A program made the translations under genes and the position numbers. A stretch of 64,000 nt of DNA from Clusia tigrina (Eukaryota > Arthropoda > Insecta > Diptera > Clusiidae): contig OV050031.1 of assembly GCA_920105625.2 (NCBI GenBank), positions 70,503,995-70,567,994 on the forward strand, read 5' to 3'. Positions within the stretch are counted from its first letter, which is position 1. Every line of letters starts with the position of its first letter. The notes under the pieces were generated by a model that had not been told where the DNA came from, did not search any database, and saw only the letters and a list, made by a program, of their open reading frames with translations. Positions 26,641-64,000 of the stretch are shown in pieces.

Positions 26641-26649
26641 AGGCAGAGA

Positions 26650-30556: not shown

Positions 30557-32845
30557 TCAGACCCCCCAATCGACAGCGGCAGCGACTGAGACGCCTACAG
30601 ACACGCTGACAGAGGCTGCGACGCCGACTGAGGCAGATAGGGGTATATATTGACATAGAGAATGCCGCAGACCCCCCAATCGACGGCGGCAGCGACTGAG
30701 ACGCCTATAGAGACACTGACAGAGGATGCGACGCTGACTGATGCTGCGACGCCGACTGAGACGCCGGCTGAGGCAGAGAGGGGTAGACATAGGCATAGAT
30801 AAGGCAGCTCACACCCCAATCGACAGCGGCAGCGACTGAGACGCCTACAGAGATGCTGACAGAGGCTGCGACGCCGACTGATGCGAATAGGTTTAGATAT
30901 AGCCATAGAGAAGGCAGCAGACCCCCCCAATCGACAGCGGCAGCGACTGAGACGCCTACAGAGACGCTGAGAGAGGCTGCGACGCCGACTGATGCGAATA
31001 GGTTTAGATATAGCTATAGAGAAGGCAGCAGACCCCCCAATCAACAGCGGCAGCGACTGAGATGCCTGCAGAGACACTGACAGAAGCTGCGACGCTGACA
31101 GATGCTGCGACGCCCACTGAGACGCCGACTGATTCAGAGAGGGGTAGACATAGGCATAGAGAAGGCAGCAGACCCCTCAATCGACAGCGGCAGCGACTGA
31201 GACGCCTACAGAGACGTTGACAGAGGCTGCGACGCCGACTGAGACGCCGACTGAGGCAGATAGGGGTAGATTTATTCATAGAGAATGCAGCAGACCCCCC
31301 AATCGACAGCGGCATCTACTGAGACGCCTACAGAGACGCTGAGAGAGGCTGCGACGCCGACTGATGCGAATAGGTTTAGATATAGCCATAGAGAAGGCAT
31401 CAGACCCCCCAATCGACAGCGGCAGCGACTGAGATGCCTACAGAGACGCTGACAAGAGGCTGCGACGCCGACTGAGTTGTCGTCTGAGGCAGATAGGGGT
31501 AGATATAGGTATAAAGAAGGCAGCAGACCCCCCATTCGACAGCGGCAGCGGCTGAGACGCCTAAAAATCGCTGACAGAGGCTGCGACGCCGACTGAGGCA
31601 GATAGGGGTAGATATTGGCATAGAGAATGCAGCAGACCCTCCAATCGATGGCGGCAGCGACTGAGACGCCAAGAGAGACGCTGACAGAGGCTGCGACGCC
31701 GACTGAGATGCCGACTGAGGCAGATATTGGTAGATATAGGCATACAGAAGGCAGCAGACCCCCCAATCGACAGCGGCAGCGACTGAGACGCCTACAGAGA
31801 CTCTGACAGAGGCTGAGACGCCGACTGAGGCAGATACGGGTAGATATTGACATAGAGAAGGCAGCACACCCCCAATCGACAGCGGCAGCGACTGAGACGC
31901 CTACAGAGACGCTGACAGAGGCTGCGACTCCGACTGAGGCAGATAGGGGTAGATATTGGCATAGAGAATGCAGCAGACCCCCCTATCGACGGCGGCAGCG
32001 ACTGAGACGCCTAGAGAGACGCTGACAGAGGCTGCGACGCCGACTGAGATGCCGACTGAGGTATGTAGGGGTAGATATAGGCATAGAGAAGGCAGCAGAC
32101 CCCCCCAATCGACAGCGGCAACAACTGAGACGCCTACATAGACGCTGACAATGGCTGCGATGCCGACTGATACGCCGACTGAGACGCCGACTGAGACATA
32201 TAAGGGTAGATATTGGCATAGAGAAGGCAGCAGACCTCCCAATCGACAGCGGCAGCGACTGAGACGCCTACAGAGGCGCTGACAGAGGCTGCGAAACCGA
32301 CTTTGACGCCGACTGAGGCGCGTAGATATAGGCATAGAGAAGGCAGCAGACCCACCAATCGACAGCGGCAACAACTGAGACGCATACAAAGACGCTGATA
32401 GAGGCTGCGACGCCGACTGAGTTGCCGACTGAGGCAGATGGGGGTAGACATAGGAATACAGAAGGCAGCAGACCCCCCAATCGACAGCGGCAGCGACTGA
32501 GACGCCTATAGAGACGCTGACAGAGAGTGCGACGCTGACAGATGTTGCGACGCCGACTGAGACGCCGGCTGAGGCAGAGAGGGGTAGACATAGGCATATA
32601 GAAGGCATCAGACCCCCCAATCGACAGCGGCAGCGACTGAGACGCCTACAGAGACGCTGACATAGGCTGCGACGCCGACTGAGACGCCGACTGAGACGCC
32701 GACTGAGGCAGATAGGGGTAGACATAGGCATAGAGAAGGCAGCAGACCCCTCAATCGACAGCGGCAGCGACTGAGACGCCTACAGAGACGTTGACAGAGG
32801 CTGCGACGCCCACTGAGACGCAGACTGAGGCAGATAGGGGTAGAT
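30557..32845. repeat. Tandem block U, unit 2
   Basis: Second adjacent copy of 28,312-30,556 with the undeleted monomer at 30,651-30,710. Where unit 1 is truncated, this copy reads GATTTAATCATAGAGAATGC and continues into other array sequence. From 31,320 it also forms the left end of the 13-kb block. Confidence 0.87.
32619..32752 (+). repeat. Type monomer, 134-bp class
   Basis: Three successive GACGCCGACTGA 12-mers precede GGCAGATAGGGG, giving 110 + 24 bp. This monomer lies in the left copy of the 13-kb block and is missing at the matching place in the right copy (near 51,993), so its gain or loss is one dated step in the history of the array. Confidence 0.9.
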
Positions 32846-35800
32846 TTAATCATAGAGAATGCAGCAGACCCCCCAATCGACAGCGGCAGCTAGTGAGACG
32901 CCTAGTGAGACGCTGACAGAGGCTGCGACGCCGACTGATGCGAATAGGTTTAGATATAGCCATAGAGAAGGCAGCAGACCCCCCAATCGACAGCGGCAGC
33001 GACTGAGATGCCTACAGAGACGCTGACAAGAGGCTGCGACGCCGACTAAGACGCCGACTTAGGCAGAGAGGGGTAGACATAGGCATAAAGAAGGCAGCAG
33101 ACCCCCAATCGACAGCGGCAACAAGTGAGACGCTGACAGAGGCTGCGACGCCGACTGAGATGCCGAATGAAAGAGGTAGGGGTAGATATAGGCATAGAGA
33201 ATGCAGCAGACCCCCCAATCGACAGCGGCAGGTACTGAGACGCATACAGAGACGCTCGCAAGAGGCTGCGACGCCGACTGAGGCAGATAGGGGTAGAGTT
33301 AGGCAAAGAGAAGGCAGCTGACCCCCCAATCGACAGCGTCAGCGACTGAGACGCCTACAGAGACGCTGACAGAGGCTGCGACGCCGAATGAGGCAGACAG
33401 GGGTAGATATTGGCATAGATAATGCAGCAGACCCCCCAATCGACAACGGCAGCGACTGAGATGCCTACAGAGACGCTGACAAGAGGCTGCGACGCCGACT
33501 GAGGCAGATAGGGGTAGATATAGGCATAGATAAAGCAGCAGACGCCCCCCCAATCGACAGCGTCAGCGACTGAGACGCCTACAGAGACGCTGACAGAGGC
33601 TGCGACGCCGACTGAGTTGCCGACTGAGGCAGATAGGGGTAGATATAGGCATACAGAAAGCAGCAGACCCCCCAACGGACAGCGGCAGCGACTGAGACGC
33701 CCACAGAGACGCTGACAGAGGCTGCGACGGTGACAGATGCTGCGACGCCGACTGAGACGCCGACTGAGGCAGAGAGGGGTAGACATAGGCATAGAGAAGG
33801 CAGCAGACAACCCAATCGACAGCGGCAACAAATGAGACGCCTACATAGACGCTGACAGAGGCTGCGAAGCCGACTGAGACGCCGACTAAGGCAGAGAAGG
33901 GTAGATATTGGCATAGAAAAGGCAGCAGACCCCCCAATCGACAGCGGCAGCGACTGAGACACCTACAGAGACGCTGACAGAGGCTGCGAAGCCGACTGAG
34001 ACGCCGACTGAGGCAGATAGGGGTAGATATAGGCATAGACAAGGCAGCATACCCCCCAATCGACAGCGGCAGCGACTGAGACGCATTCAGAGAGGCTGAC
34101 AGAGGCTGCGACGCTGATTGAGACGCCGACTGAGGCAGATAGGGGTACATATTGGCATAGAGAAGGCAACAGACCCGCCCAATCAACAGCGGCCGCGACT
34201 GAGACGCCTACAGAGATGCTGACAGAGGCTGCGAAGCCGACTAAGACGCCGACTGAGGCAGATAGGGGTAGATATAGCCATAGAGAAGGCAGTAGACCCC
34301 CAATCGACAACGGCAGCGACTGAGATGCCTACAGAGATGCTGACAAGAGGCTGCGACGCCCACTGAGTTGCCGACTGAGGCAGATAGGGGTAGATATAGG
34401 CATACAGAAGGCAGCAGATCCCCCAATCGACAGCGGCAGCGACTGAGACGCCTACAGAGACATTGACAGAGGCTGCGACGCCGACTGAGACGCCGACTGA
34501 GGCAGATAGGGGTAGATTTATTCATAGAGAATGCAGCAGACCCCCCAATCGACAGCGGCAGATACTGAGACGCCTACAGAGACGTTGACAGAGGCTGCGA
34601 CGCCGACTGAGGCAGATAGGGGTATATATTGGCATAGAGAATACCGCAGACCCCCCAAATCGACGGTGGCAGCGACTGAGACGCCTAGAGAGACACTGAT
34701 AGAGGCTGCGACGCTGACAGATGCTGCGACGCCGACTGAGGCAGAGAGGGGTAGACATAGGCATAGAGAAGGCAGCAGACCCCTCAATCGACAGCGGCAG
34801 CGACTGATACGCTTACAGAGACGTTGACAGAGGCTGCGACGCCGACTGAGACGCCGACTGAGGCAGATAGGGGTAGATTTATTCATAGAGAATGCAGGAG
34901 ACCCCCCAATCGACAGCGGCAGCTACTGAGACGCCTACAGAGACGCTGAGAGAGGCTGCGACGCCGACTGATGCGAATAGGTTTAGATATAGCCATAGAG
35001 AAGGCAGCCCCAATCGACAGCGGCAGCGGCTGAGACGCCTACAGAGACGCTGACAGAGGCTGAGACGCCGACTGAGGCAGATACGGGTAGATATTGACAT
35101 AGAGAAGGCACCAGACCCCCTAATCGACTGCGGCAGCGACTGAGACGCCTACAGAGACGCTGACAGAGGCTGCGACGCCGACTGAGGCAGATAGGGGTAG
35201 ATATTGGCATAGAGAATGCAGCAGACCCCCCAATCGACGGCGGCAGCGACTGAGACGCCTAGAGAGACGCTGACAGAGGCTGCGACGCCGACTGATACGC
35301 CGACTGAGGCAGAGAGGGGTAGACATAGGCATAGAGAAGGCAGCAGACCCCTCAATCGACAGCGGCAGCGACTGAGACGCCTACAGAGACGTTGACAGAG
35401 GCTGCGACGCCGACTGAGACGCCGACTGAGGCAGATAGGGGTAGATATAGGCATAGAGAAGGCAGCAGACCCCCTAATCGACAGCGGCAGCGACTGAGAC
35501 ACATACAGAGACGCTGACAGAGGCTGCGACGCCGACTGAGGCAGATAGGGGTAGATATTGGCATAGAGAATGCAGCAGACCCCCCAATCAACGGCGGCAG
35601 CGACTGAGATGCCTAGAGAGACGCTGACAGAGGTTGCGACGCCGACTAAGATGCCGACTGAGGTAGGTAGGGGTAGATATTGGCATTGAGAAGACAGGAG
35701 ACCCCCCAATCGACAGCGGAAGCAACTGAGACGCCTACATAGACGCTGACAATGGCTGCGGTGCCGACTGAGACGCCGACTGAGGCATATAAGGGTAGAT

Positions 35801-36051
35801 ATTGGCATAGAGAAGGCAGCAGACTCCCCCAATCGACAGCGGCAGAGACTGAGACGCTTACAGAGATGCTGACAGAGGCTGCGACGCCGACTGAGACGCC
35901 AACTGAGGCAGATAGGGGTAGATATAGGCATAGAAAAGGCAGCATACCCCCTATCGACAGCGGCACCGACTGAGACACCTACAGAGACGCTGACAGAAGC
36001 TGCGACGCCGACTGAGGCAGATAGGTTTAGATATTGGCATAGAGAAGGCAG

Positions 36052-36068
36052 CAGACCCACAGAGACGC
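36052..36068. other. Deletion scar shared by blocks A and B
   Basis: GCAGACCCAC runs into AGAGACGCCGAGAGAGG, losing the C tract and monomer start, roughly 35 bp compared with 39,741-39,785. The same joint is at about 55,463-55,480 in block B, so the deletion predates the 13-kb duplication. Confidence 0.85.
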
Positions 36069-36904
36069 CGAGAGAGGCTGTGACGCCGACTGATGCGTAT
36101 AGGGGTAGATATAGCTATAGAGAAGGCAGCAGACCCCCCAATCGACAACGGCAGCGACTGAGATGCCTACAGAGACGCTGACAAGAGGCTGCGACGCCGA
36201 CAGCGGCAGCGACTGAGACGCCTACAGAGACGCTGACAGAGGCTGCGACGCCGACTAAGACACCGACTGAGCCAGAGAGGGGTAGACATAGGCATAGAGA
36301 AGGCAGCAGACCCCCAATCGACAGCGGCAACAAGTGAGACGCCTACAGAGACGCGGACAGAGGCTGCGACGCCGACTGAGATGCCGAATGAAAGAGGTAG
36401 GGGTAGATATAGGCATAGAGAATGCAGCAGACCCCCCAATCGGCAGCGGCAGCGACTGAGACGCATACTGAGATTCTGACAGAGGCTTCGACTCCGACTG
36501 AGGCGCCGACTGAGGCAGAGAGGGGTAGAAATAGGAATAGAGAAGGCAGCAGACCCCCAATAGACAGCGGCAACAACTGAGACGCCTACAGAGATGCTGA
36601 CAGAGGCTGCGACGAAGACTGAGATGCCGACTGAAACAGGTAGGGGTAAATATAGGCATAGAGACGGCAGCAGACCCCCCAATCGACAGCGTCAGCTACT
36701 GAGATGCCTACAGAGACGCTGACAGAGGCTGCGACGCCGACTGAGTTGCCGACTGAGGCAGATAGGGGTAGATATAGGCATACACAAGTCAGCAGACCCC
36801 CCAATCGACAGCGGCAGCGACTGAGACGCCTACAGAGACGCTGACAGAGGCTGCGACGCCGACTGAGGCAGATAGGGGTAGATATTGGCATACAGAATGC
36901 AGCA

Positions 36905-38176
36905 GACCCCCCAATCGACGGCGGCAGCGACTGTAACGCCTAGAGAGACGCTGACAGATGCTGCGACGCTGACTGAGACGCCGACTGAGGCAGAGAGGGG
37001 TAGACATAGGCATAGAGAAGGCAGCAGACACCCCAATCGACAGCGGCAACAAATGAGACGCCTACGTAGACGCTGACAGAGGCTGCGAAGCCGACTGAGG
37101 CAGAGAAGGGTCGATATTGGCATAGAGAAGGCAGCAGACCCCCCCAATCGACAGCGGCAGCGACTGAGACACCGACAGAGGCGCTGACAGAGGCTGCGAA
37201 GCCGACTGAGACGCCGACTGAGGCAGATAGGGGTAGATATAGGCATAGACAAGGCAGCAGATGCCCCAATCGACAGCGGCAGCGACTGAGACGCATTCAG
37301 AGAGGCTGACAGAGGCTGCGACGCTGACTGAGACGCCGACTGAGGCAGATAAGGGTAGACATAGGCATAGAGAAGGCAGCAGACCCCCCAATCGACAGCG
37401 GCAGCGACTAAGACACCTACAGAGACGCTGACAGAGGCTGCGACGCCGACTGAGACAGATAGGGGTAAATATTGGCATAGAGAAGGCAGCAGACCCCCCA
37501 ATCAACAGCGGCAGCCGACTAAGACGCCGACTGAGGCAGAGAGGGGTAGAAATAGGAATAGAGAAGGCAGCAGACCCCCAAAAGACAGCGGCAACAACTG
37601 AGACGCCTACAGAGATGCTGACAGAGGCTGCGACGCAGACTGAGATGCCGACTGAAACAGGTAGGGGTAGATATAGGCATAGAGAAGGCAGCAGACCCCT
37701 CAATGGACAGCAGCAGTGACTGAGACGCCTACAGAGCCGCTGACAGAGGCTGCGACGCCATCTGAGACGCCAACTGAGGCATATAGGGGTAGATATAGGC
37801 ATAGAGAATGCAGCATACCCCCCAATCGACAGCGGCAGGTAATGAGACGCCTACAGAGACCCTGAGAGAGGCTGCGATGCCGACTGATGCGGATAGGGGT
37901 AGATATAGCCATAGAGAAGGCAGCAGACCCCCCAACCGACAACGGCAGCGACTGAGATGCCTACAGAGACGCTGACAAAAGGCTGCGACGCCGACAGAGG
38001 CTGCGACGCCCACTGAGTTGCCGACTGAGGCAGATAGGCGTAGATATAGGTATACAGAAGGCAGCAGACCCCCCAATCGACAGCGGCAGCGACTGAGACG
38101 CCTACACAGACGCTGACAGAGGCTGCGACGCCGACTGAGGCAGATAGGGGTATATATTGACATAGAGAATGCCGCA
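36905..38176. repeat. Tandem block V, unit 1
   Basis: Adjacent to unit 2 (38,177-39,612). The offset starts at 1272, becomes 1394 after one 122-bp monomer absent here (present at about 38,660-38,780) and 1436 after a 42-bp deletion at about 37,515, where GCGGCAGC runs into CGACTAAGACG. The same deletion is present in block B at about 57,055. Confidence 0.87.
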
Positions 38177-39612
38177 GACCCCCCAATCGACGGCGGCAGC
38201 GACTGTGACGCCTAGAGAGACGCTGACAGATGCTGCGACGCCGACTGAGACGCCGACTGAGGCAGAGAGGGGTAGACATAGGCATAGAGAAGGCAGCAGA
38301 CACCCCAATCGACAGTGGCAACAAATGAGACGCCTACATAGACGCTGACAGAGGCTGCGAAGCCGACTGAGGCAGAGAAGGGTCGATATTGGCATAGAGA
38401 AGGCAGCAGACCCCCCCAATCGACAGCGGCAGCGACTGAGACACCGACAGAGGCGCAGACAGAGGCTGCGAAGCCGACTGAGACGCCGACTGATGCAGAT
38501 AGGGGTAGATATAGGCATAGACAAGGCTGCAGATGCCCCAATCGACAGCGGCAGCGACTGAGACGCATTCAGAGAGGCTGACAGAGGCTGCGACGCTGAC
38601 TGAGACGCCGACTGAGGCAGATAAGGGTAGACATAGGCATAGATAAGGCAGCAGACCCCCCAATCGACAGCGGCAGCGACTGAGACGCTTACAGAGATGC
38701 TGACAGAGGCTTCGACGCCGACTGAGACGCCGACTGAGGCAGATAGGGGTAGATATAGGCATAGAGAAGGCAGCAGACCCCCCAATCGACAGCGGCAGCG
38801 ACTAAGACACCTACAGAGACGCTGACAGAGGCTGCGACGCCGACTGAGACAGATAGGGGTAAATATTGGCATAGAGAAGGCAGCAGACCCCCCCAATCAA
38901 CAGCGGCAGCGATTGAGACGCCTACAGAGATACTGACAGAGGCTGCGAAGCCGACTAAGACGCCGACTGAGGCAGAGAGGGGTAGAAATAGGAATAGAGA
39001 AGGCAGCAGACCCCCAATAGACAGCGGCAACAACTGAGACGCCTACAGAGATGCTGACAGAGGCTGCGACGCAGACTGAGATGCCGACTGAAACAGGTAG
39101 GGGTAGATATAGGCATAGAGAAGGCAGCAGACCCCTCAATGGACAGCAGCAGTGACTGAGACGCCTACAGAGCCGCTGACAGAGGCTGCGACGCCATCTG
39201 AGACGCCGACTGAGGCATATAGGAGTAGATATAGGCATAGAGAATGCAGCAGACCCCCCAATCGACAGCGGCAGGTACTGAGACGCCTACAGAGACCCTG
39301 AGAGAGGCTGCGATGCCGCCTGATGCGGATAGGGGTAGATATAGCCATAGAGAAGGCAGCAGACCCCCCAACCGACAACGGCAGCGACTGAGATGCCTAC
39401 AGAGACGCTGACAAAATGCTGCGACGCCGACAGAGGCTGCGACGCCCACTGAGTTGCCGACTGAGGCAGATAGGGGTAGATATAGGTATACAGAAGGCAG
39501 CAGACCCCCCAATCGACAGCGGCAGCGACTGAGACGCCTACAGAGACGCTGACAGAGGCTGCGACGCCGACTGAGGCAGATAGGGGTATATATTGACATA
39601 GAGAATGCCGCA
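38177..39612. repeat. Tandem block V, unit 2
   Basis: Fuller copy of unit 1, starting at CCAATCGACGGCGGC with GACTGTGACGCCTAGAGAG. It carries the monomers with GAGGCTTCGACGCCG and GAAATAGGAATAGAG, GACAGCAGCAGTGACTGAG and GACGCCATCTGAGACG. Confidence 0.87.
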
Positions 39613-39910
39613 GACCCCCCAATCGACGGCGGCAGCGACTGAGACGCCTACAGAGTCGCTGACAAGAGGCTGCGACGCCATCTGAGACGCCGAATGAGGC
39701 AGATAGGGGTACATATAGGCATAGAGAATGCAGCAGACCCCTCCAATCGACAGCGGCAGGTACTGAGACGCCTACAGAGACGCCGAGAGAGGCTGTGACG
39801 CCGACTGATGCGTATAGGGGTAGATATAGCCATAGAGAAGGCAGCAGATCCCCCAATCGACAACGGCAGCGACTGAGATGCCTACAGAGACGCTTACAAG
39901 AGGCTGCGAC

Positions 39911-39928
39911 GCCGACAGAGGCTGCGAC
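39911..39928. other. 18-bp unit present in block A, absent in block B
   Basis: Block A has GCCGACAGAGGCTGCGAC here; block B at about 59,450 reads GAGGCTGCGACGCCCACTGA without it. The unit is flanked by GGCTGCGACG direct repeats and is three hexamers long. With one C lost at the next C tract it explains the offset change from 19,541 to 19,522. Confidence 0.9.
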
Positions 39929-41274
39929 GCCCACTGAGTTGCCGACTGAGGCAGATAGGGGTAAATATTGGCACAGAGAAGGCAACAGACCCCCCCAATC
40001 AACAGGGGCACCGACTGAGACGCCTACAGAGATGCGGACAGAGGCTGCGAAGCCGAGTAAGACTCCGACTGAGGCAGAAAGGGGTAGACATAAGAATAGA
40101 GAAGGCAGCAGACCCTCAATCGACAGCGGCAACAACTGAGACGCCTACAGAGATGCTGACAGAGGTTGCGACGCTGACTGAGATGCCGACTGAAACAGGT
40201 AGGGGTAGATATAGGCATAGAGAATGCAGCAGACCCCCAAATCGACAGCGGCAGGTACTGAAACGCCTACAGAGACGCTGAGAGAGGCTGCGACGCCGAC
40301 TGATGCGGATAGGGGTAGATATAGCCATAGAGAAGGCAGCAGACCCCCCAATCGACAGCGGCAGCGACTGAGACGCATTCAGAGAGGCTGACAGAGGCTG
40401 CGACGCTGACTGAGACGCCGACTCAGGCAGATAAGGGTAGACATAGGCATAGAGAAGGCAGCAGAACCCCAATCAACGGCGGCAGAGACTGAGACGCTTA
40501 CAGAGATGCTGACAGAGGCTCCGACGCCGACTGAGACGCCAACTGAGGCAGATAGGGGTAGATATAGGCATAGAAAAGGCAGCATACCCCCAATCGACAG
40601 CGGCACCGACTGAGACACCTACAGAGACGCTGACAGAGGCTGCGACGCCGACTGAGGCAGATAGGGGTAGATATTGGCATAGACAAGGCAGCAGACCCCC
40701 CAATCAACAGCGGCAGCGAATGAGACGCCTACAGAGACGCTGACAGAGGCTGCGACGGCGACTAAGACGTCGACTGAGGCAGAGAGGGGTAGACATAGGC
40801 ATAGAGAAGGCAGCAGACCCCCAATCGACAGCAGCAACAAGTGAGACGCCTACAGAGACGCTGACAGAGGCTGCGACGCCGACTGAGATGCCGAATGAAA
40901 GAGGTAGGGGTAGATATAGGCATAAAGAATGCAGCAGACCCCCCAAACGACAGCGGCAGGTACTGAGACGCCTACAGAGACGCTGAGAGAGGCTGCGACG
41001 CCAACTGATGCGGATAGGGGTAGATATAGCCATAGAGAAGGCAGAAGACCAATCGAACACGGCAGCGACTGAGATGCCTACAGAGACGCTGACAGAGGCT
41101 GCGACGCCGACTGAGTTGCCGACTGAGGCAGTTAGGGGTAGATATAGGCATACACAAGTCAGCAGACCCCCCAATCGACAGCGGCAGCGACTGAGACGCC
41201 TACAGAGACGCTGACAGAGGCTGCGACGCCGACTGAGGCAGATAGGGGTAGATATTGGCATACAGAATGCAGCA

Positions 41275-45815: not shown

Positions 45816-46083
45816 GCCGACTGAGGCAGATAGGAGTAGATATAGGCATAGAGAAGGCAGCAGACCCCCCAATCCAAAGCGGCAGCGACTGAGACACCTA
45901 CAGAGACGCTGACAGAGGCTGCGACGCCGACTGAGGCAGATAGGGGTAAATATTGGCGCAGAGAAGGCAAAAGACCCCCCCAATCAACAGCGGCAGCGAC
46001 TGAGACGCCTACAGAGACGTTGACAGAGGCTGCGACGCCGACTGAGACGCCGACTGAGGCAGATAGGGGTAGATTTATTCATA

Positions 46084-50687: not shown

Positions 50688-53600
50688 TGAGACGCCTACA
50701 GAGACGCTGAGAGAGGCTGCGACGCCGACTGATGCGAATAGGTTTAGATATAGCCATAGAGAAGGCATCAGACCCCCCAATCGACAGCGGCAGCGACTGA
50801 GATGCCTACAGAGACGCTGACAAGAGGCTGCGACGCCGACTGAGTTGTCGTCTGAGGCAGATAGGGGTAGATATAGGTATAAAGAAGGCAGCAGACCCCC
50901 CATTCGACAGCGGCAGCGGCTGAGACGCCTAAAAATCGCTGACAGAGGCTGCGACGCCGACTGAGGCAGATAGGGGTAGATATTGGCATAGAGAATGCAG
51001 CAGACCCTCCAATCGATGGCGGCAGCGACTGAGACGCCAAGAGAGACGCTGACAGAGGCTGCGACGCCGACTGAGATGCCGACTGAGGCAGATATTGGTA
51101 GATATAGGCATACAGAAGGCAGCAGACCCCCCAATCGACAGCGGCAGCGACTGAGACGCTTACAGAGACTCTGACAGAGGCTGAGACGCCGACTGAGGCA
51201 GATACGGGTAGATATTGACATAGAGAAGGCAGCACACCCCCAATCGACAGCGGCAGCGACTGAGACGCCTACAGAGACGCTGACAGAGGCTGCGACGCCG
51301 ACTGAGGCAGATAGGGGTAGATATTGGCATAGAGAATGCAGCAGACCCCCCTATCGACGGCGGCAGCGACTGAGACGCCTAGAGAGATGCTGACAGAGGC
51401 TGCGACGCCGACTGAGATGCCGACTGAGGTATGTAGGGGTAGATATAGGCATAGAGAAGGCAGCAGACCCCCCCAATCGACAGCGGCAACAACTGAGACG
51501 CCTACATAGACGCTGACAATGGCTGCGATGCCGACTGATACGCCGACTGAGACGCCGACTGAGACATATAAGGGTAGATATTGGCATAGAGAAGGCAGCA
51601 GACCTCCCAATCGACAGCGGCAGCGACTGAGACGCCTACAGAGGCGCTGACAGAGGCTGCGAAACCGACTTTGACGCCGACTGAGGCGCGTAGGGGTAGA
51701 TATAGGCATAGAGAAGGCAGCAGACCCACCAATCGACAGCGGCAACAACTGAGACGCATACAAAGACGCTGATAGAGGCTGCGACGCCGACTGAGTTGCC
51801 GACTGAGGCAGATGGGGGTAGACATAGGAATACAGAAGGCAGCAGACCCCCCAATCGACAGCGGCAGAGACTGAGACGCCTATAGAGACGCTGACAGAGG
51901 GTGCGACGCTGACAGATGTTGCGACGCCGACTGAGACGCCGGCTGAGGCAGAGAGGGGTAGACATAGGCATATAGAAGGCATCAGACCCCCCAATCGACA
52001 GCGGCAGCGACTGAGACGCCTACAGAGACGTTGACAGAGGCTGCGACGCCCACTGAGACGCAGACTGAGGCAGATAGGGGTAGATTTAATCATAGAGAAT
52101 GCAGCAGACCCCCCAATCGACAGCGGCAGCTAGTGAGACGCCTAGTGAGACGCTGACAGAGGCTGCGACGCCGACTGATGCGAATAGGTTTAGATATAGC
52201 CATAGAGAAGGCAGCAGACCCCCCAATCGACAGCGGCAGCGACTGAGATGCCTACAGAGACGCTGACAAGAGGCTGCGACGCCGACTAAGACGCCGACTT
52301 AGGCAGAGAGGGGTAGACATAGGCATAAAGAAGGCAGCAGACCCCCAATCGACAGCGGCAACAAGTGAGACGCTGACAGAGGCTGCGACGCCGACTGAGA
52401 TGCCGAATGAAAGAGGTAGGGGTAGATATAGGCATAGAGAATGCAGCAGACCCCCCAATCGACAGCGGCAGGTACTGAGACGCATACAGAGACGCTCGCA
52501 AGAGGCTGCGACGCCGACTGAGGCAGATAGGGGTAGAGTTAGGCAAAGAGAAGGCAGCTGACCCCCCAATCGACAGCGTCAGCGACTGAGACGCCTGCAG
52601 AGACGCTGACAGAGGCTGCGACGCCGACTGTGTTGCCGACTGAGGCAGATAGGGGTAGATATAGGTATACAGAAGGCAGCAGACCCCCCAATCTTCAGCG
52701 GCAGCGACTGAGACGCCTACAGAGACGCTGACAGAGGCTGCGACGCCGAATGAGGCAGACAGGGGTAGATATTGGCATAGATAATGCAGCAGACCCCCCA
52801 ATCGACAACGGCAGCGACTGAGATGCCTACAGAGACGCTGACAAGAGGCTGCGACGCTGACTGAGGCAGATAGGGGTAGATATAGGCATAGATAAAGCAG
52901 CAGACGCCCCCCCAATCGACAGCGTCAGCGACTGAGACGCCTACAGAGACGCTGACAGAGGCTGCGACGCCGACTGAGTTGCCGACTGAGGCAGATAGGG
53001 GTAGATATAGGCATACAGAAAGCAGCAGACCCCCCAACGGACAGCGGCAGCGACTGAGACGCCCACAGAGACGCTGACAGAGGCTGCGACGGTGACAGAT
53101 GCTGCGACGCCGACTGAGACGCCGACTGAGGCAGAGAGGGGTAGACATAGGCATAGAGAAGGCAGCAGACAACCCAATCGACAGCGGCAACAAATGAGAC
53201 GCCTACATAGACGCTGACAGAGGCTGCGAAGCCGACTGAGACGCCGACTGAGGCAGAGAAGGGTAGATATTGGCATAGAAAAGGCAGCAGACCCCCCAAT
53301 CGACAGCGGCAGCGACTGAGACACCTACAGAGACGCTGACAGAGGCTGCGAAGCCGACTGAGACGCCGACTGAGGCAGATAGGGGTAGATATAGGCATAG
53401 ACAAGGCAGCATACCCCCCAATCGACAGCGGCAGCGACTGAGACGCATTCAGAGAGGCTGACAGAGGCTGCGACGCTGATTGAGACGCCGACTGAGGCAG
53501 ATAAGGGTAGACAGAGGCATAGAGAAGGCAGCAGACCCCCCCAATCGACAGCGGCAGCGATTGAGACGCTTACAGAGATGCTGACAGAGGCTGCACCGCC

Positions 53601-54141
53601 GACTGAGACGCCGACTGAGGCAGATAGGGGTAGATATAGGCATAGAGAATGCAGCAGACCCCCTAATCGACAGCGGCAGCGACTGAGACACCTACAGAGA
53701 CGCTGACAGAGGCTGCGACGCCGACTGAGGCAGATAGGGGTACATATTGGCATAGAGAAGGCAACAGACCCGCCCAATCAACAGCGGCCGCGACTGAGAC
53801 GCCTACAGAGATGCTGACAGAGGCTGCGAAGCCGACTAAGACGCCGACTGAGGCAGATAGGGGTAGATATAGCCATAGAGAAGGCAGAAGACCCCCAATC
53901 GACAACGGCAGCGACTGAGATGCCTACAGAGATGCTGACAAGAGGCTGCGACGCCCACTGAGTTGCCGACTGAGGCAGATAGGGGTAGATATAGGCATAC
54001 AGAAGGCAGCAGATCCCCCAATCGACAGCGGCAGCGACTGAGACGCCTACAGAGACGTTGACAGAGGCTGCGACGCCGACTGAGACGCCGACTGAGGCAG
54101 ATAGGGGTAGATTTATTCATAGAGAATGCAGCAGACCCCCC

Positions 54142-54251
54142 AATCGACAGCGGCAGATACTGAGACGCCTACAGAGACGTTGACAGAGGCTGCGACGCCG
54201 ACTGAGGCAGATAGGGGTATATATTGGCATAGAGAATACCGCAGACCCCCC
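54142..54251 (+). repeat. Type monomer, 110-bp class
   Basis: Same layout as the 122-bp class but with only one copy of the CCGACTGAGACG 12-mer before GGCAGATAGGGG, which accounts for the exact 12-bp length difference. This copy carries the TATATATTGGCATAG and AGAATACCGCAG variants, which mark a sub-family also seen near 3.57, 16.35, 16.95, 17.3, 21.3, 22.3, 25.3 and 34.6 kb. Confidence 0.93.
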
Positions 54252-55101
54252 AATCGACGGTGGCAGCGACTGAGACGCCTAGAGAGACACTGATAGAGGC
54301 TGCGACGCTGACAGATGCTGCGACGCCGACTGAGGCAGAGAGGGGTAGACATAGGCATAGAGAAGGCAGCAGACTCCTCAATCGACAGCGGCAGCGACTG
54401 AGACGCTTACAGAGACGTTGACAGAGGCTGCGACGCCGACTGAGACGCCGACTGAGGCAGATAGGGGTAGATTTATTCATAGAGAATGCAGGAGACCCCC
54501 CCAATCGACAGCGGCAGCTACTGAGACGCCTAGAGAGACGCTGACAGAGGCTGCGACGCCGACTGATACGCCGACTGAGGCAGAGAGGGGTAGACATAGG
54601 CATAGAGAAGGCAGCAGACCCCTCAATCGACAGCGGCAGCGACTGAGACGCCTACAGAGACGTTGACAGAGGCTGCGACGCCGACTGAGACGCCGACTGA
54701 GGCAGATAGGGGTAGATATAGGCATAGAGAAGGCAGCAGACCCCCTAATCGACAGCGGCAGCGACTGAGACACATACAGAGACGCTGACAGAGGCTGCGA
54801 CGCCGACTGAGGCAGATAGGGGTAGATATTGGCATAGAGAATGCAGCAGACCCCCCAATCAACGGCGGCAGCGACTGAGATGCCTAGAGAGACGCTGACA
54901 GAGGTTGCGACGCCGACTAAGATGCCGACTGAGGTAGGTAGGGGTAGATATTGGCATTGAGAAGACAGGAGACCCCCCAATCGACAGCGGAAGCAACTGA
55001 GACGCCTACATAGACGCTGACAATGGCTGCGGTGCCGACTGAGACGCCGACTGAGGCATATAAGGGTAGATATTGGCATAGAGAAGGCAGCAGACTCCCC
55101 C

Positions 55102-55241
55102 AATCGACAGCGGCAGCGACTGAGACGCCTACAGAGACGCTGACAGAGGCTGCGACGCTGACAGATGCTGCGACGCCGACTGAGACGCCGGCTGAGGCAG
55201 AGAGGGGTAGACATAGGCATAGAGAAGGCATCAGACCCCCC
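55102..55241 (+). repeat. Type monomer, 140-bp class
   Basis: A 122-bp monomer plus an 18-bp insertion: GGCTGCGACG is followed by CTGACAGATGCTGCGACG, three hexamers long. The tail carries GCAGAGAGGGGTAGACATAGG and GGCATCAGACC. The class recurs, for example at 0.4, 4.5, 17.96, 22.8 and 26.2 kb. This copy is present in the right 13-kb block and absent from the left one near 35.83 kb, where the offset between blocks changes by exactly 140. Confidence 0.9.
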
Positions 55242-58200
55242 AATCGACAGCGGCAGCGACTGAGACGCCTACAGAGACGCTGACATAGGCTGCGACGCCG
55301 ACTGAGACGCCAACTGAGGCAGATAGGGGTAGATATAGGCATAGAAAAGGCAGCATACCCCCTATCGACAGCGGCACCGACTGAGACACCTACAGAGACG
55401 CTGACAGAAGCTGCGACGCCGACTGAGGCAGATTGGGGTAGATATTGGCATAGAGAAGGCAGCAGACCCACAGAGACGCCGAGAGAGGCTGTGACGCCGA
55501 CTGATGCGTATAGGGGTAGATATAGCCATAGAGAAGGCAGCAGACCCCCCAATCGACAACGGCAGCGACTGAGATGCCTACAGAGACGCTGACAAGAGGC
55601 TGCGACGCCGACAGCGGCAGCGACTGAGACGCCTACAGAGACGCTGACAGAGGCTGCGACGCCGACTAAGACACCGACTGAGCCAGAGAGGGGTAGACAT
55701 AGGCATAGAGAAGGCAGCAGACCCCCAATCGACAGCGGCAACAAGTGAGACGCCTACAGAGACGCGGACAGAGGCTGCGACGCCGACTGAGATGCCGAAT
55801 GAAAGAGGTAGGGGTAGATATAGGCATAGAGAATGCAGCAGACCCCCCAATCGGCAGCGGCAGCGGCAGCGACTGAGACGCATACTGAGATTCTGACAGA
55901 GGCTTCGACTCCGACTGAGGCGCCGACTGAGGCAGAGAGGGGTAGAAATAGGAATAGAGAAGGCAGCAGACCCCCAATAGACAGCGGCAACAACTGAGAC
56001 GCCTACAGAGATGCTGACAGAGGCTGCGACGAAGACTGAGATGCCGACTGAAACAGGTAGGGGTAAATATAGGCATAGAGACGGCAGCAGACCCCCCAAT
56101 CGACAGCGTCAGCTACTGAGATGCCTACAGAGACGCTGACAGAGGCTGCGACGCCGACTGAGTTGCCGACTGAGGCAGATAGGGGTAGATATAGGCATAC
56201 ACAAGTCAGCAGACCCCCCAATCGACAGCGGCAGCGACTGAGACGCCTACAGAGACGCTGACAGAGGCTGCGACGCCGACTGAGGCAGATAGGGGTAGAT
56301 ATTGGCATACAGAATGCAGCAGACCCCCCAATCGACGGCGACAGCGACTGTAACGCCTAGAGAGACGCTGACAGATGCTGCGACGCTGACTGAGACGCCG
56401 ACTGAGGCAGAGAGGGGTAGACATAGGCATAGAGAAGGCAGCAGACACCCCAATCGACAGCGGCAACAAATGAGACGCCTACGTAGACGCTGACAGAGGC
56501 TGCGAAGCCGACTGAGGCAGAGAAGGGTCGATATTGGCATAGAGAAGGCAGCAGACCCCCCCAATCGACAGCGGCAGCGACTGAGACACCGACAGAGGCG
56601 CTGACAGAGGCTGCGAAGCCGACTGAGACGCCGACTGAGGCAGATAGGGGTAGATATAGGCATAGACAAGGCAGCAGATGCCCCAATCGACAGCGGCAGC
56701 GACTGAGACGCATTCAGAGAGGCTGACAGAGGCTGCGACGCTGACTGAGACGCCGACTGAGGCAGATAAGGGTAGACATAGGCATAGAGAAGGCAGCAGA
56801 CCCCCCAATCGACAGCGGCAGCGACTGAGACGCTTACAGAGATGCTGACAGAGGCTTCGACGCCGACTGAGACGCCGACTGAGGCAGATAGGGGTAGATA
56901 TAGGCATAGAGAAGGCAGCAGACCCCCCCAATCGACAGCGGCAGCGACTAAGACACCTACAGAGACGCTGACAGAGGCTGCGACGCCGACTAAGACAGAT
57001 AGGGGTAAATATTGGCATAGAGAAGGCAGCAGACCCCCCAATCAACAGCGGCAGCCGACTAAGACGCCGACTGAGGCAGAGAGGGGTAGAAATAGGAATA
57101 GAGAAGGCAGCAGACCCCCAATAGACAGCGGCAATAACTGAGACGCCTACAGAGATGCTGACAGAGGCTGCGACGCAGACTGAGATGCCGACTGAAACAG
57201 GTAGGGGTAGATATAGGCATAGAGAAGGCAGCAGACCCCTCAATGGACAGCAGCAGTGACTGAGACGCCTACAGAGCCGCTGACAGAGGCTGCGACGCCA
57301 TCTGAGACGCCGACTGAGGCATATAGGGGTAGATATAGGCATAGAGAATGCAGCATACCCCCCAATCGACAGCGGCAGGTAATGAGACGCCTACAGAGAC
57401 CCTGAGAGAGGCTGCGATGCCGACTGATGCGGATAGGGGTAGATATAGCCATAGAGAAGGCAGCAGACCCCCCAACCGACAACGGCAGCGACTGAGATGC
57501 CTACAGAGACGCTGACAAAAGGCTGCGACGCCGACAGAGGCTGCGACGCCCACTGAGTTGCCGACTGAGGCAGATAGGCGTAGATATAGGTATACAGAAG
57601 GCAGCAGATCCCCCAATCGACAGCGGCAGCGACTGAGACGCCTACACAGACGCTGACAGAGGCTGCGACACAGACTGAGGCAGATAGGGGTATATATTGA
57701 CATAGAGAATGCCGCAGACCCCCCAATCGACGGCGGCAGCGACTGTGACGCCTAGAGAGACGCTGACAGATGCTGCGACGCCGACTGAGACGCCGACTGA
57801 GGCAGAGAGGGGTAGACATAGGCATAGAGAAGGCAGCAGACACCCCAATCGACAGTGGCAACAAATGAGACGCCTACATAGACGCTGACAGAGGCTGCGA
57901 AGCCGACTGAGGCAGAGAAGGGTCGATATTGGCATAGAGAAGGCAGCAGACCCCCCCAATCGACAGCGGCAGCGACTGAGACACCGACAGAGGCGCTGAC
58001 AGAGGCTGCGAAGCCGACTGAGACGCCGACTGAGGCAGATAGGGGTAGATATAGGCATAGACAAGGCTGCAGATGCCCCAATCGACAGCGGCAGCGACTG
58101 AGACGCATTCAGAGAGGCTGACTGAGGCTGCGACGCTGACTGAGACGCCGACTGAGGCAGATAAGGGTAGACATAGGCATAGAGAAGGCAGCAGACCCCC

Positions 58201-60330
58201 CCAATCGACAGCGGCAGCGACTGAGACGCTTACAGAGATGCTGACAGAGGCTTCGACGCCGACTGAGACGCCGACTGAGGCAGATAGGGGTAGATATAGG
58301 CATAGAGAAGGCAGCAGACCCCCCAATCGACAGCGGCAGCGACTAAGACACCTACAGAGACGCTGACAGAGGCTGCGACGCCGACTGAGACAGATAGGGG
58401 TAAATATTGGCATAGAGAAGGCAGCAGACCCCCCCAATCAACAGCGGCAGCGATTGAGACGCCTACAGAGATACTGACAGAGGCTGCGAAGCCGACTAAG
58501 ACGCCGACTGAGGCAGAGAGGGGTAGAAATAGGAATAGAGAAGGCAGCAGACCCCCAATAGACAGCGGCAACAACTGAGACGCCTACAGAGATGCTGACA
58601 GAGGCTGCGACGCAGACTGAGATGCCGACTGAAACAGGTAGGGGTAGATATAGGCATAGAGAAGGCAGCAGACCCCTCAATGGACAGCAGCAGTGACTGA
58701 GACGCCTACAGAGCCGCTGACAGAGGCTGCGACGCCATCTGAGACGCCGACTGAGGCATATAGGGGTAGATATAGGCATAGAGAAAGCAGCAGACCCCCC
58801 AATCGACAGCGGCAGGTACTGAGACGCCTACAGAGACCCTGAGAGAGGCTGCGATGCCGACTGATGCGGATAGGGGTAGATATAGCCATAGAGAAGGCAG
58901 CAGACCCCCCAACCGACAACGGCAGCGACTGAGATGCCTACAGAGACGCTGACAAAATGCTGCGACGCCGACAGAGGCTGCGACGCCCACTGATTTGCCG
59001 ACTGAGGCAGATAGGGGTAGATATAGGTATACAGAAGGCAGCAGACCCCCCAATCGACAGCGGCAGCGACTGAGACGCCTACAGAGACGCTGACAGAGGC
59101 TGCGACGCCGACTGAGGCAGATAGGGGTATATATTGACATAGAGAATGCCGCAGACCCCCCAATCGACGGCGGCAGCGACTGAGACGCCTACAGAGTCGC
59201 TGACAAGAGGCTGCGACGCCATCTGAGACGCCGAATGAGGCAGATAGGGGTAGATATAGGCATAGAGAATGCAGCAGACCCCTCCAATCGACAGCGGCAG
59301 GTACTGAGACGCCTACAGAGACGCCGAGAGAGGCTGTGACGCCGACTGATGCGTATAGGGGTAGATATAGCCATAGAGAAGGCAGCAGATCCCCCAATCG
59401 ACAACGGCAGCGACTGAGATGCCTACAGAGACGCTGACAAGAGGCTGCGACGCCCACTGAGTTGCCGACTGAGGCAGATAGGGGTAAATATTGGCACAGA
59501 GAAGGCAACAGACCCCCCAATCAACAGGGGCACCGACTGAGACGCCTACAGAGATGCGGACAGAGGCTGCGAAGCCGAGTAAGACTCCGACTGAGGCAGA
59601 AAGGGGTAGACATAGGAATAGAGAAGGCAGCAGACCCTCAATCGACAGCGGCAACAACTGAGACGCCTACAGAGATGCTGACAGAGGTTGCGACGCTGAC
59701 TGAGATGCCGACTGAAACAGGTAGGGGTAGATATAGGCATAGAGAATGCAGCAGACCCCCAAATCGACAGCGGCAGGTACTGAGACGCCTACAGAGACGC
59801 TGAGAGAGGCTGCGACGCCGACTGATCCGGATAGGGGTAGATATAGCCATAGAGAAGGCAGCAGACCCCCCAATCGACAGCGGCAGCGACTGAGACGCAT
59901 TCAGAGAGGCTGACAGAGGCTGCGACGCTGACTGAGACGCCGACTCAGGCAGATAAGGGTAGACATAGGCATAGAGAAGGCAGCAGAACCCCAATTAACG
60001 GCGGCAGAGACTGAGACGCTTACAGAGATGCTGACAGAGGCTCCGACGCCGACTGAGACGCCAACTGAGGCAGATAGGGGTAGATATAGGCATAGAAAAG
60101 GCAGCATACCCCCAATCGACAGCGGCACCGACTGAGACACCTACAGAGACGCTGACAGAGGCTGCGACGCCGACTGAGGCAGATAGGGGTAGATATTGGG
60201 ATAGACAAGGCAGCAGACCCCCCAATCAACAGCGGCAGCGAATGAGACGCCTACAGAGACGCTGACAGAGGCTGCGACGGCGACTAAGACGTCGACTGAG
60301 GCAGAGAGGGGTAGACATAGGCATAGAGAA

Positions 60331-60355
60331 GGCAGCAGACAGCAGCAACAAGTGA
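60331..60355. other. 11-bp deletion private to block B
   Basis: GGCAGCAGAC joins AGCAGCAACAAG; block A at 40,809-40,832 has an extra CCCCAATCGAC. The lost 11 bp ends in GAC, and GAC also precedes it, so microhomology flanks the event. It accounts exactly for the offset change from 19,522 to 19,511. Confidence 0.9.
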
Positions 60356-63300
60356 GACGCCTACAGAGACGCTGACAGAGGCTGCGACGCCGACTGAGAT
60401 GCCGAATGAAAGAGGTAGGGGTAGATATAGGCATAAAGAATGCAGCAGACCCCCCAAACGACAGCGGCAGGTACTGAGACGCCTACAGAGAAGCTGAGAG
60501 AGGCTGCGACGCCAACTGATGCGGATAGGGGTAGATATAGCCATAGAGAAGGCAGCCGACCAATCGAACACGGCAGCGACTGAGATGCCTACAGAGACGC
60601 TGACAGAGGCTGCGACGCCGACTGAGTTGCCGACTGAGGCAGATAGGGGTAGATATAGGCATACACAAGTCAGCAGACCCCCCAATCGACAGCGGCAGCG
60701 ACTGAGACGCCTACAGAGACGCTGACAGAGGCTGCGACGCCGACTGAGGCAGATAGGGGTAGATATTGGCATACAGAATGCAGCAGACCCCCCAATCGAC
60801 GGCGACAGCGTCTGTGACGCCTAGAGAGACGCTGACAGATGCTGCGACGCCGACTGAGACGCCGACTGAGGCAGAGAGGGGTAGACATAGGCATAGAGAA
60901 GGCAGCAGACACCCCAATCGACAGTGGCAACAAATGAGACGCCTACATAGACGCTGACAGAGGCTGCGAAGCCGACTGAGGCAGAGAAGGGTCGATATTG
61001 GTATAGAGAAGGCAGCAGACCCCCCCAATCGACAGCGGCAGCGACTGAGACACCGACAGAGGCGCTGACAGAGGCTGCGAAGCCGACTGAGACGCCGACT
61101 GAGGCAGATAGGGGTAGATATAGGCATAGACAAGGCAGCAGATGCCCCAATCGACAGCGGCAGCGACTGAGACGCATTCAGAGAGGCTGACAGAGGCAGC
61201 GACGCTGACTGAGACGCCGACTGAGGCAGATAAGGGTAGACATAGGCATAGAGAAGGCAGCAGACCCCCCAATCGACAGCGGCAGCGACTGAGACGCTTA
61301 CAGAGATGCTGACAGAGGCTTCGACGCCGACTGAGAGGCCGACTGAGGCAGATAGGGGTAGATATAGGCATAGAGAAGGCAGCAGACCCCCCCATCGACA
61401 GCGGCAGCGACTAAGACACCTACAGAGACGCTGACAGAGGCTGCGACGCCGACTGAGACAGATAGGGGTAAATATTGGCATAGAGAAGGCAGCAGACCCC
61501 CCCAATCAACAGCGGCAGCGATTGAGACGCCTACAGAGATAGTGACAGAGGCTGCGAAGCCGACTAAGACGCCGACTGAGGCAGAGAGGGGTGGAAATAG
61601 GAATAGAGAAGGCAGCAGACCCCCCCAATCGACAGCGGCAGGTACTGAGACGCCTATAGAGACCCTGAGAGAGGCTGCGATGCCGACTGATGCGGATAGG
61701 GGTAGATATAGCCATAGAGAAGGCAGCAGACCCCCCAACCGACAACGGCAGCGACTGAGATGCCTACAGAGACGCTGACAAAAGGCTGCGACGCCGACAG
61801 AGGCTGCGACGCCCACTGAGTTGCCGACTGAGGCAGATAGGGGTAGATATAGGTATACAGAAGGCAGCAGACCCCCCAATCGACAGCGGCAGCGACTGAG
61901 ACGCCTACAGAGACGCTGACAGAGGCTGCGACGCCGACTGAGGCAGATAGGGGTATATATTGACATAGAGAATGCCGCAGACCCCCCAATCGACGGCGGC
62001 AGCGACTGAGACGCCTATACAGACACTGACAGAGGCTGCGACGCTGACAGATGCTGCGACGCCGACTGAGACGCCGACTGAGGCAGAGAGGGGTAGACAT
62101 AGGCATAGATAAGGCAGCTCACACCCCAATCGACAGCGGCAGCGACTGAGACGCTTACAGAGATGCTGACAGAGGCTGCGACGCCGACTGAGACGCCGAC
62201 TGAGGCAGATAGGAGTAGATATAGGCATAGAGAAGGCAGCAGACCCCCCAATCCAAAGCGGCAGCGACTGAGACACCTACAGAGACGCTGACAGAGGCTG
62301 CGACGCCGACTGAGGCAGATAGGGGTAAATATTGGCGCAGAGAAGGCAAAAGACCCCCCCAATCAACAGCGGCAGCGACTGAGACGCCTACAGAGTCGCT
62401 GACAGAGGCTGCGAAGCCGACTAAGACATCGACTGAGGCAGAGAGGGGTAGACATAGGAATAGAGAAGGCAGCAGACCCTCAATCGACAGCGGCAACAAC
62501 TGAGACGCCTACAGAGATGCTGACAGAGGCTGCGACGCCGACTGAGATGCCGACTGAAGCAGGTAGAGTAGATATAGGCATAGAGAATGCAGCAGGCCCC
62601 CCAATCGACAGCGGCAGGTACTGAGACGCCTACAGAGACGCTGAGAGGGGCTGCGACGCCGACTGATGCGAATAGGTTTAGATATAGCCATAGAGAAGGC
62701 AGCACACCCCCCAATCGACAGCGGCAGCGACTGAGATGCCTACAGAGACGCTGACAAGAGGCTGCGACGCCGACTGAGTTGGCGTCTGAGGCAGATAGGG
62801 GTAGATATAGGTATACAGAAGGCAGCAGACCCCCCATTCGACAGCGGCAGCGGCTGAGACGCCTAAAAATCGCTAACAGAGGCTGCGATGCCGACTGATG
62901 CGGATAGGGGTAGATATAGCCATAGAGAAGGCAGCAGACCCCCCAATCGACAGCGGCAGCGACTGAGACGCATTCAGAGAGGCTGACAGAGGCTGCGACG
63001 CTGACTGAGACGCCGACTCAGCCAGATCAGGGTAGACATAGGCATAGAGAAGGCAGCAGAACCCCAATCAACGGCGGCAGAGACTGAGACGCTTACAGAG
63101 ATGCTGACAGAGGCTCCGACGCCGACTGAGACGCCAACTGAGGCAGATAGGGGTAGATATAGGCATAGAAAAGGCAGCATACCCCCAATCGACAGCGGCA
63201 CCGACTGAGACACCTACAGAGACGCTGACAGAGGCTGCGACGCCGACTGAGGCAGATAGGGGTAGATATTGGCATAGTGAAGGCAGCAGACCCCCAATCG

Positions 63301-64000
63301 ATAGCAGCAACAAGAGAGACGCCTACAGAGACGCTGACAGAGGCTGAGACGCCGACTAAGATGCCGAATGAAAGAGGTAGGGGTAGATATAGGCATAAAG
63401 AATGCAGCAGACCCCCCAAACGACAGCGGCAGGTACTGAGACGCCTACAGAGACGCTGAGAGAGGCTGCGACGCCGACTGATGCGGATAGGGGTAGATAT
63501 AGCCATAGAGAAGGCAGCCGACCAATCGAACACGGAAGCGACTGAGATGCCTACAGAGACGCTGACAAGAGGCTGCGACGCCGACTGAGGCAGATAGGGG
63601 TACATATAGGCATAGAGAAGGCAGCAGACTCCCCCAATCGACAGCGTCAGCTACTGAGATGCCTACAGAGACGCTGACAGAGGCTGCGACGCCGACTGAG
63701 TTGCCGACTGAGGCAGATAGGGGTAGATATAGGCATACACAAGACAGCAGACCCCCCAATCGACAGCGGCAGCGACTGAGACGCCTACAGAGACGCTGAC
63801 AGAGGCTGCGACGCCGACTGAGGCAGATAGGGGTAGATATTGGCATAGAGAATGCAGCAGACCCCCCAAACGACGGCGACAGCGACTGTGACGCCTAGAG
63901 AGACGCTGACAGATGCTGCGACGCCGACTGAGACGCCGACTGAGGCAGAGAGGGGTAGACATAGGCATAGAGAAGGCAGCAGACACCCCAATCGACAGTG

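What the first reader, a model, noticed from the sequence alone, without database searches (positions are those of the whole stretch)
31320..64000. A >13-kb satellite block copied as a unit, offset about 19.5 kb
31,320-44,488 and 50,688-64,000 share monomer order, rare variants and deletion scars across their whole length, and the second copy is unfinished at the window end. Duplication of over 100 consecutive monomers in one step is well beyond usual dimer-to-decamer higher-order repeats. The copies look recent: one mismatch in about 130 bases in the stretch I compared.
Basis: seen in the sequence. Interest (0 to 1): 0.75.

Follow-up and report, generated by a model that had tools for sequence, protein, structure and literature searches.

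The report
Nineteen-kilobase satellite block duplicated in tandem
In a fly's repetitive DNA, a block of about 164 repeat units was copied once next to itself, a large but understandable product of misaligned recombination; the same repeat family also forms some assembled chromosome tips in this fly.

Summary
31,320-44,488 and 50,688-64,000 align at 99.42% (73 mismatches in 12,681 positions) and share monomer order (101 of 112 monomers; ten shuffles reached 2-3). Fetched flanks show the whole event: copy A 31,318-50,692, copy B 50,686-71,271, past the window. Their edges meet within 7 bp, in monomer phase. So it is one tandem duplication of a 19,368-bp unit (about 164 monomers), best explained by out-of-register recombination; two copies, not a higher-order repeat. 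Point changes fall equally on both copies (31 and 30).

Scaffold lengths identify Clusia tigrina, a druid fly, chromosome 2. Its authors.3-92.3 Mb there low confidence for scaffold order, but the fetched 214 kb has no N. Reads could not be checked.

Beyond the finding: three of eight sampled ends of the four large scaffolds finish in 5-8 kb of a 113-bp variant of this satellite, pointing outward; 152 of its 155 exact 53-mer matches in the genome lie there. That resembles dipteran long-repeat telomeres.

The parts
1..64000 (+). satellite array, 532 indexed monomers; main length classes about 110, 122 and 140 bp, built on a 6-bp periodicity
   Evidence: autocorrelation 0.40-0.49 at lags 6, 12, 18, 30 against 0.27 expected
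31318..50692 (+). copy A of the duplicated unit (unit length 19,368 bp, about 164 monomers)
50686..64000 (+). copy B, part inside the window; it continues to window coordinate 71,271 in the fetched flank
50686..50692 (+). duplication junction: 7 bp in which the unit's left edge and right edge overlap, in monomer phase
   Evidence: (junction monomer 110 bp)
32618..32751 (+). 134 bp present in A only, read as lost from B
34903..35225 (+). 323 bp present in A only, read as lost from B
52580..52701 (+). 122 bp present in B only, read as lost from A
53484..53716 (+). 233 bp present in B only, read as lost from A
55147..55286 (+). 140 bp present in B only, read as lost from A
56801..56923 (+). 123 bp present in B only; identical third copies (58,197; 41,754; 38,656; 27,617), one in the same relative place of the adjacent tandem copy, point to a loss in A
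36903..39610 (+). older 1.3-1.4 kb tandem pair inside copy A, also present in copy B (56,320-59,151), so it predates the large event
   Evidence: 1.26% and 1.36% divergence
43896..47937 (+). 2.2-kb offset tandem pair found in copy A only (0.49 +- 0.16%); copy B has its own 2.9-kb pair at 64,090-69,909 (0.34 +- 0.11%)
16134..24022 (+). example of the smaller block duplications in the array (16,134-19,165 against 21,089-24,022, 0.41%)
8521..20857 (+). another smaller block duplication (8,521-10,090 against 19,288-20,857, 0.25%)

Best explanation
A 19.37-kb block of about 164 monomers in an internal satellite array on Clusia tigrina chromosome 2 was duplicated once, head to tail. Shown: two adjacent copies at about 99.4% identity, edges that meet within 7 bp at the same monomer phase, mutations shared equally between the copies, and a 214-kb stretch full of similar but smaller block duplications. 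Inferred: two copies of the array paired out of register by about 164 monomers and recombined inside a homologous monomer (unequal sister-chromatid or homologue exchange, or break-induced replication restarting behind the fork); the copies then diverged by point mutation, by loss of one to three monomers at a time, and by one smaller tandem duplication in each copy. No function need be assumed for the block. The satellite family has a separate variant at chromosome ends, which is a candidate telomere; the duplicated array belongs to the internal, diverged part of the family.
For: Alignment and edges. The event gives chains of 112 and 31 matched monomers; the next of 136 chains of 6 or more in the 214 kb has 48. 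Two smaller tandem duplications have equally clean junctions: 1.66 kb with 24 bp overlap and 1.75 kb with 11 bp. Of 73 mismatches, 31 were polarised as changes in A, 30 in B, 1 neither; 8 had no close third copy and 3 lay outside indexed monomers. No N in the 214 kb. Unequal exchange and break-induced replication are the published models for such arrays (PMC8997354, passages).
Against: No reads, depth or second individual could be examined. The assembly authors mark chromosome 2 from 60.32 to 92.32 Mb as low confidence for order and orientation of scaffolds (PMC10915360, passages). Perfect identity at the junction is only 7 bp between monomers about 87% alike, short for classical crossing over. 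Six of the nine duplications put to the junction test did not show a clean junction; that test was ungapped, and one of the six, the 2.9-kb pair, does abut by monomer index, but several copies in this array are not simple tandem duplications or have since been altered. Two short right-part comparisons are more diverged, 0.98 +- 0.23% and 0.78 +- 0.26%. Most of the monomer-scale losses are inferred from unlikeness to neighbours, not from third copies.
Confidence: 0.78

Rival explanations
1. Assembly artefact: two haplotypes or a mis-resolved repeat placed in tandem.
For: The locus lies in a stretch that the authors call low confidence for scaffold order and orientation; curation of this assembly removed 5 haplotypic duplications overall. 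A divergence of 0.58% could be heterozygosity (inference).
Against: No N in the 214 kb around it, so no visible scaffold join. The junction is in phase, with flanks only about 87% alike, so it is not an overlap join of near-identical ends. The right edge of copy B lies where a tandem duplication predicts. Each copy carries its own missing monomers and its own secondary tandem pair. About 1 variant per 174 bp should be resolvable by 31x HiFi reads (coverage; resolvability inferred).
Confidence: 0.08
2. Break-induced replication or template switching behind a stalled fork, rather than reciprocal unequal exchange, made the second copy. This is a sub-case of the best explanation.
For: A published model for such arrays (PMC8997354, passages); only 7 bp of perfect identity at the junction; nested duplications are abundant.
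Against: The junction is in monomer phase inside a homologous monomer, which ordinary homologous pairing also gives. The final structure is the same, so sequence cannot decide.
Confidence: 0.35
3. Reintegration of an extrachromosomal circle excised from the array.
For: A head-to-tail arrangement with a homologous junction fits circle insertion too; no call tests it.
Against: Needs two events where one suffices; no data on circles were available.
Confidence: 0.08
4. A very long higher-order repeat (164-mer) with more copies elsewhere.
For: Two tandem copies exist.
Against: No third copy of comparable length among the chains in 214 kb; matches to the unit outside A and B are short pieces. The rest of the internal arrays was only sampled.
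Confidence: 0.04

Closest known systems
Segmental duplications inside plant centromeric satellite arrays (pea CEN6: FabTR-107, FabTR-85; 5.2-Mb tandem duplication; PMC10027222, passages)
   Same: Large portions of a satellite array duplicated as blocks, seen as long parallel lines in a self dot plot.
   Different: Here a single 19.4-kb tandem duplication in an insect, with the junction resolved to 7 bp and the later history of both copies read out.
Alpha-satellite higher-order repeats; the longest human one has 34 monomers (DYZ3; PMC8997354, passages)
   Same: Multi-monomer unit copied head to tail; unequal exchange or break-induced replication as the model.
   Different: About 164 monomers but only two copies; not a homogenised array of units.
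Long complex terminal tandem repeats of Diptera (midges about 176 or 350 bp, a mosquito about 820 bp, Bradysia 161-191 bp; PMC12051294, passages; PMC9498494, passages)
   Same: Complex satellite at chromosome ends, with relatives in internal regions, as in Bradysia where terminal satellites also occur near centromeres.
   Different: 113-bp unit in an acalyptrate fly; an exact 53-mer of the end variant is absent from the 214 kb and from 16 other internal stretches checked.

Membership tests
Tandem duplication within a satellite by out-of-register recombination | Two adjacent colinear copies with far higher identity than random monomers | tested here: met
   99.42% against about 88% for same-length monomer pairs; adjacent at 50,686
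Tandem duplication within a satellite by out-of-register recombination | Left and right unit edges coincide at one junction, in monomer phase | tested here: met
   Edges 50,686 and 50,692; junction monomer 110 bp
Tandem duplication within a satellite by out-of-register recombination | Present in single reads at normal depth | not testable with these tools
   No reads available
Higher-order repeat array | Many tandem copies of the same multi-monomer unit | tested here: not met
   Two copies only in the 214 kb examined
Assembly or haplotype duplication | A contig join or gap at the copy boundary | tested here: not met
   No N in 43 bins of 214 kb; an ungapped mis-join cannot be excluded
Dipteran long complex terminal tandem repeat (for the satellite family) | Satellite at chromosome ends | tested here: met
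   At 3 of the 8 ends of the four large scaffolds: C1 right, C2 left, C2 right; not at C1 left or either end of C3 and C4
Dipteran long complex terminal tandem repeat (for the satellite family) | Uniform polarity towards the end and homogenisation between ends | tested here: met
   Same monomer strand reads outward at 3 of 3 ends; same commonest 113-bp monomer at all 3; mean pairwise divergence 0.7% and 0.1% in the C2 end stretches, but 11% in the last 3 kb of C1
Dipteran long complex terminal tandem repeat (for the satellite family) | No TTAGG telomere repeat | not tested
   The genome search for TTAGG repeats did not complete
Dipteran long complex terminal tandem repeat (for the satellite family) | No telomerase gene | tested here: inconclusive
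   PF12009: 0 matches, but the search rang in none of 14 control genomes
Dipteran long complex terminal tandem repeat (for the satellite family) | Physical terminal position (Bal31 or FISH) | not testable with these tools
   Needs the bench

The most novel reading that the evidence does not exclude
Clusia tigrina telomeres are arrays of a 113-bp variant of this satellite, kept nearly identical between chromosome ends by recombination among ends, yet sealed off from tens of thousands of diverged internal copies; the internal arrays, including this 19.4-kb duplication, are older telomere-type DNA that keeps recombining only locally.
Probability: 0.4. Interest if true: 0.65.

Novelty: new member of a known kind. 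Interest (0 to 1): 0.42.

Why it matters
It gives a cleanly bounded satellite duplication: junction to 7 bp, both copies' later changes readable, and monomer losses, point mutations and secondary duplications countable on the same clock (6 monomer-scale gaps per 73 substitutions in the window part). That lets models of satellite turnover be fitted to data. The side finding, an end-located variant of the same satellite, makes a candidate telomere of an acalyptrate fly directly testable.

Tried and rejected
Coding origin: the minus strand has long open frames (up to 356 codons without a stop), but all three minus frames are about equally poor in stops (0.0124-0.0146 per codon) and the commonest monomer lengths shift the frame, so I read this as composition; a 340-aa minus ORF had no homologue at E <= 0.001 among 7,997 scored candidates. 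RNA genes: none in Rfam at gathering scores, no tRNA. Mobile, viral or prokaryotic origin: no exact match of two core oligos in viral or prokaryote genome contigs; no blastn match of a 1-kb stretch in plasmids or phages. Three oligos are in no held paper. Crane fly Tipula helvola was considered from genome size and dropped because its chromosome lengths differ (PMC12405859, passages). Two megablast self-comparisons gave nothing usable (one search also stopped with an error) and were replaced by chunked blastn and monomer chaining. The scripts stopped at the final save step after printing the results cited; one search's alignment was rerun complete.

My first reading was that all monomer-scale changes after the duplication were losses; the right part of the unit shows a 2.2-kb tandem pair in A only and a 2.9-kb pair in B only, so gains probably occurred too.
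Full report
WHAT IS THERE. The whole window is a satellite array: 532 indexed monomers, main length classes about 110, 122 and 140 bp, with an internal 6-bp periodicity. Monomers of one length class differ by a median of about 12%. Order is not periodic; instead the array is a mosaic of block duplications. In the window, 83.9% of the bases fall in colinear runs of 6 or more monomers, and in 214 kb there are 136 such runs.

THE FINDING. 31,320-44,488 and 50,688-64,000 align at 99.42%: 73 mismatches in 12,681 aligned positions, 14 gaps. The chain holds 101 matched monomers of 112 in each copy; ten shuffled orders reached 2-3. Odd monomer spacings are shared.

THE WHOLE EVENT. The genome search answered after several busy replies and placed the window at G000:C2:70,503,995-70,567,994 of a 1.214-Gb genome in 666 contigs. 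I fetched 70 kb of left and 80 kb of right flank; none of the 214 kb contains N. The match runs on beyond the window and stops at 50,692 in A and 71,271 in B. On the left it starts at 31,318 in A and 50,686 in B. Both edges therefore meet in the 7 bp 50,686-50,692, which is what one tandem duplication leaves. The unit is 19,368 bp; counted by monomer index (256 to 420) it is 164 monomers. Beyond the edges identity drops to about 86-92%. The junction monomer has normal length and phase.

ONE STEP, AND WHAT FOLLOWED. Divergence is 0.55 +- 0.07% in the left part. In the right part four comparisons give 0.52 +- 0.11%, 0.58 +- 0.13%, 0.98 +- 0.23% (43,896-45,739 against 63,408-65,251) and 0.78 +- 0.26% (the overlapping piece 44,578-45,739 against 67,000-68,160). 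Mismatches in the window part are not significantly clustered (dispersion 1.36, P = 0.11). Using close third monomers as outgroups, 31 changes fall in A and 30 in B; of the other 12, 1 matched neither, 8 had no close outgroup and 3 lay outside indexed monomers. In 6 of the 62 compared positions both bases were seen among outgroups, so most changes look private. The six monomer-scale differences in the window part are segments unlike their neighbours (78-92%), so I read them as losses: four from A, two from B; only the one at 56,801 has direct support from third copies. A further 342-bp segment is missing from A near 48,780. Each copy also has its own smaller tandem pair near its right end: 2.2 kb in A (0.49 +- 0.16%) and 2.9 kb in B (0.34 +- 0.11%).

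HOW IT COMPARES IN THE ARRAY. The event comprises chains of 112 and 31 matched monomers; the next largest chain in 214 kb is 48. Nine duplications were tested for a clean junction with an ungapped edge finder: three have one (19.4 kb with 7 bp overlap, 1.66 kb with 24 bp, 1.75 kb with 11 bp) and six do not; one of the six, the 2.9-kb pair, nevertheless abuts by monomer index, so the test can miss. Block duplications in the array span 0.25% to 2.7% divergence, several close to this one, so the event belongs to a continuing process.

MECHANISM. Out-of-register recombination between homologous monomers gives this structure. Whether it was reciprocal exchange or break-induced replication cannot be told from sequence; both are published models (PMC8997354, passages). 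Short perfect identity at the junction leans a little to replication-based repair; monomer phase fits both.

WHICH GENOME. The COX1 of contig C666, translated with code 5, has its best listed matches in flies (94% to Homoneura picta). Scaffold lengths 429.82, 230.18, 187.99 and 206.07 Mb match one paper, Clusia tigrina (PMC10915360; listing, passages), where they are chromosomes 1, 2, 3 and X; contig C6 fits its Y (6.71 Mb) and C666 its mitochondrion (17.68 kb). The paper gives 1,216.4 Mb in total, the held copy 1,214.0 Mb. The authors state that chromosome 2 from about 60.32 to 92.32 Mb is repetitive and of low confidence for scaffold order and orientation. The window lies there. Orientation flips that I saw in nine 1-kb probes between 70.7 and 72.0 Mb may be scaffolding effects and I draw nothing from them. 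The duplication itself lies in DNA without gaps.

BEYOND THE FINDING. A 69-base core of the satellite has 46,298 matches (26,365 forward, 19,933 reverse, up to 2 mismatches) in the genome, none for the reversed control. Eight ends of the four largest scaffolds were sampled. Three (C1 right, C2 left, C2 right) end in the satellite, in arrays of roughly 7.4, 7.7 and 5.5 kb bounded inward by other DNA; five do not. At all three the same strand reads outward and the commonest monomer is the same 113-bp sequence. In the stretches sampled the two C2 ends are nearly uniform (0.7% and 0.1% mean pairwise divergence) and the last 3 kb of C1 is less so (11%); four 3-kb internal samples are at 14-24%. An exact 53-mer of the end type has 155 matches in the genome, 93 forward and 62 reverse. 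The 100 places listed lie in the last 7.2 kb of C1 (43) and the first 6.9 kb of C2 (57). Five more are in the next kilobase of the C2 left end (13 in L061, of which 8 were listed), which completes the 62 reverse matches, and 47 are in the fetched right end of C2. That is 152 of 155; three forward matches were not located. The 53-mer is absent from the window, the 214 kb and 16 other internal stretches, one of which holds no satellite. Dipteran telomeres of long complex repeats, with relatives in internal or pericentromeric regions, are known (PMC12051294, passages; PMC9498494, passages). No held paper has both Clusia tigrina and telomer-. Absence of TTAGG was not tested because the search did not complete; the telomerase search is uninformative.

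VERDICT. A well-bounded, large single tandem duplication in an internal satellite array, very probably real; ordinary in kind, large in size. The link to a candidate telomeric satellite is the more interesting lead and does not depend on the duplication.

Noticed in passing
L033, L034, L035, L059-L061 (ends of scaffolds C1 and C2): Outward-pointing 113-bp end variant of the satellite at three of eight sampled ends of the large scaffolds; candidate telomere of Clusia tigrina.
   Followed up: partly
L060, about C1:429,811,500-429,811,950: A short CCCGCCAAATTTT-like minisatellite lies directly inside the terminal array at the right end of C1.
   Followed up: no
window coordinates -66,495 to -53,543 (L017, L018): A 12.95-kb stretch without indexed satellite monomers; L018 holds a minus-strand ORF (2,700-3,758) with CCHC zinc-knuckle-like motifs (my reading of the letters), as in retrotransposon gag proteins.
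   Followed up: no
window coordinates -17,475 to about -16,360: A 1.1-kb monomer-to-monomer gap filled by an unrelated insert in the array.
   Followed up: no
whole window: Monomers are built from hexamers (autocorrelation peaks at 6, 12, 18, 30) and the main length classes differ by 12 and 18 bp; the plus strand is T-poor (12% T).
   Followed up: partly
G000 scaffolds C1, C2, C3: Many nuclear matches to mitochondrial COX1: 67 PF00115 matches in all (one of them in the mitochondrial contig), several nearly full length on C1.
   Followed up: no
C2:80,586,001-80,596,000 (L028) and C1:235,825,001-235,835,000 (L027): Further internal arrays of the same satellite, the C2:80.59 Mb one in opposite orientation.
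   Followed up: partly
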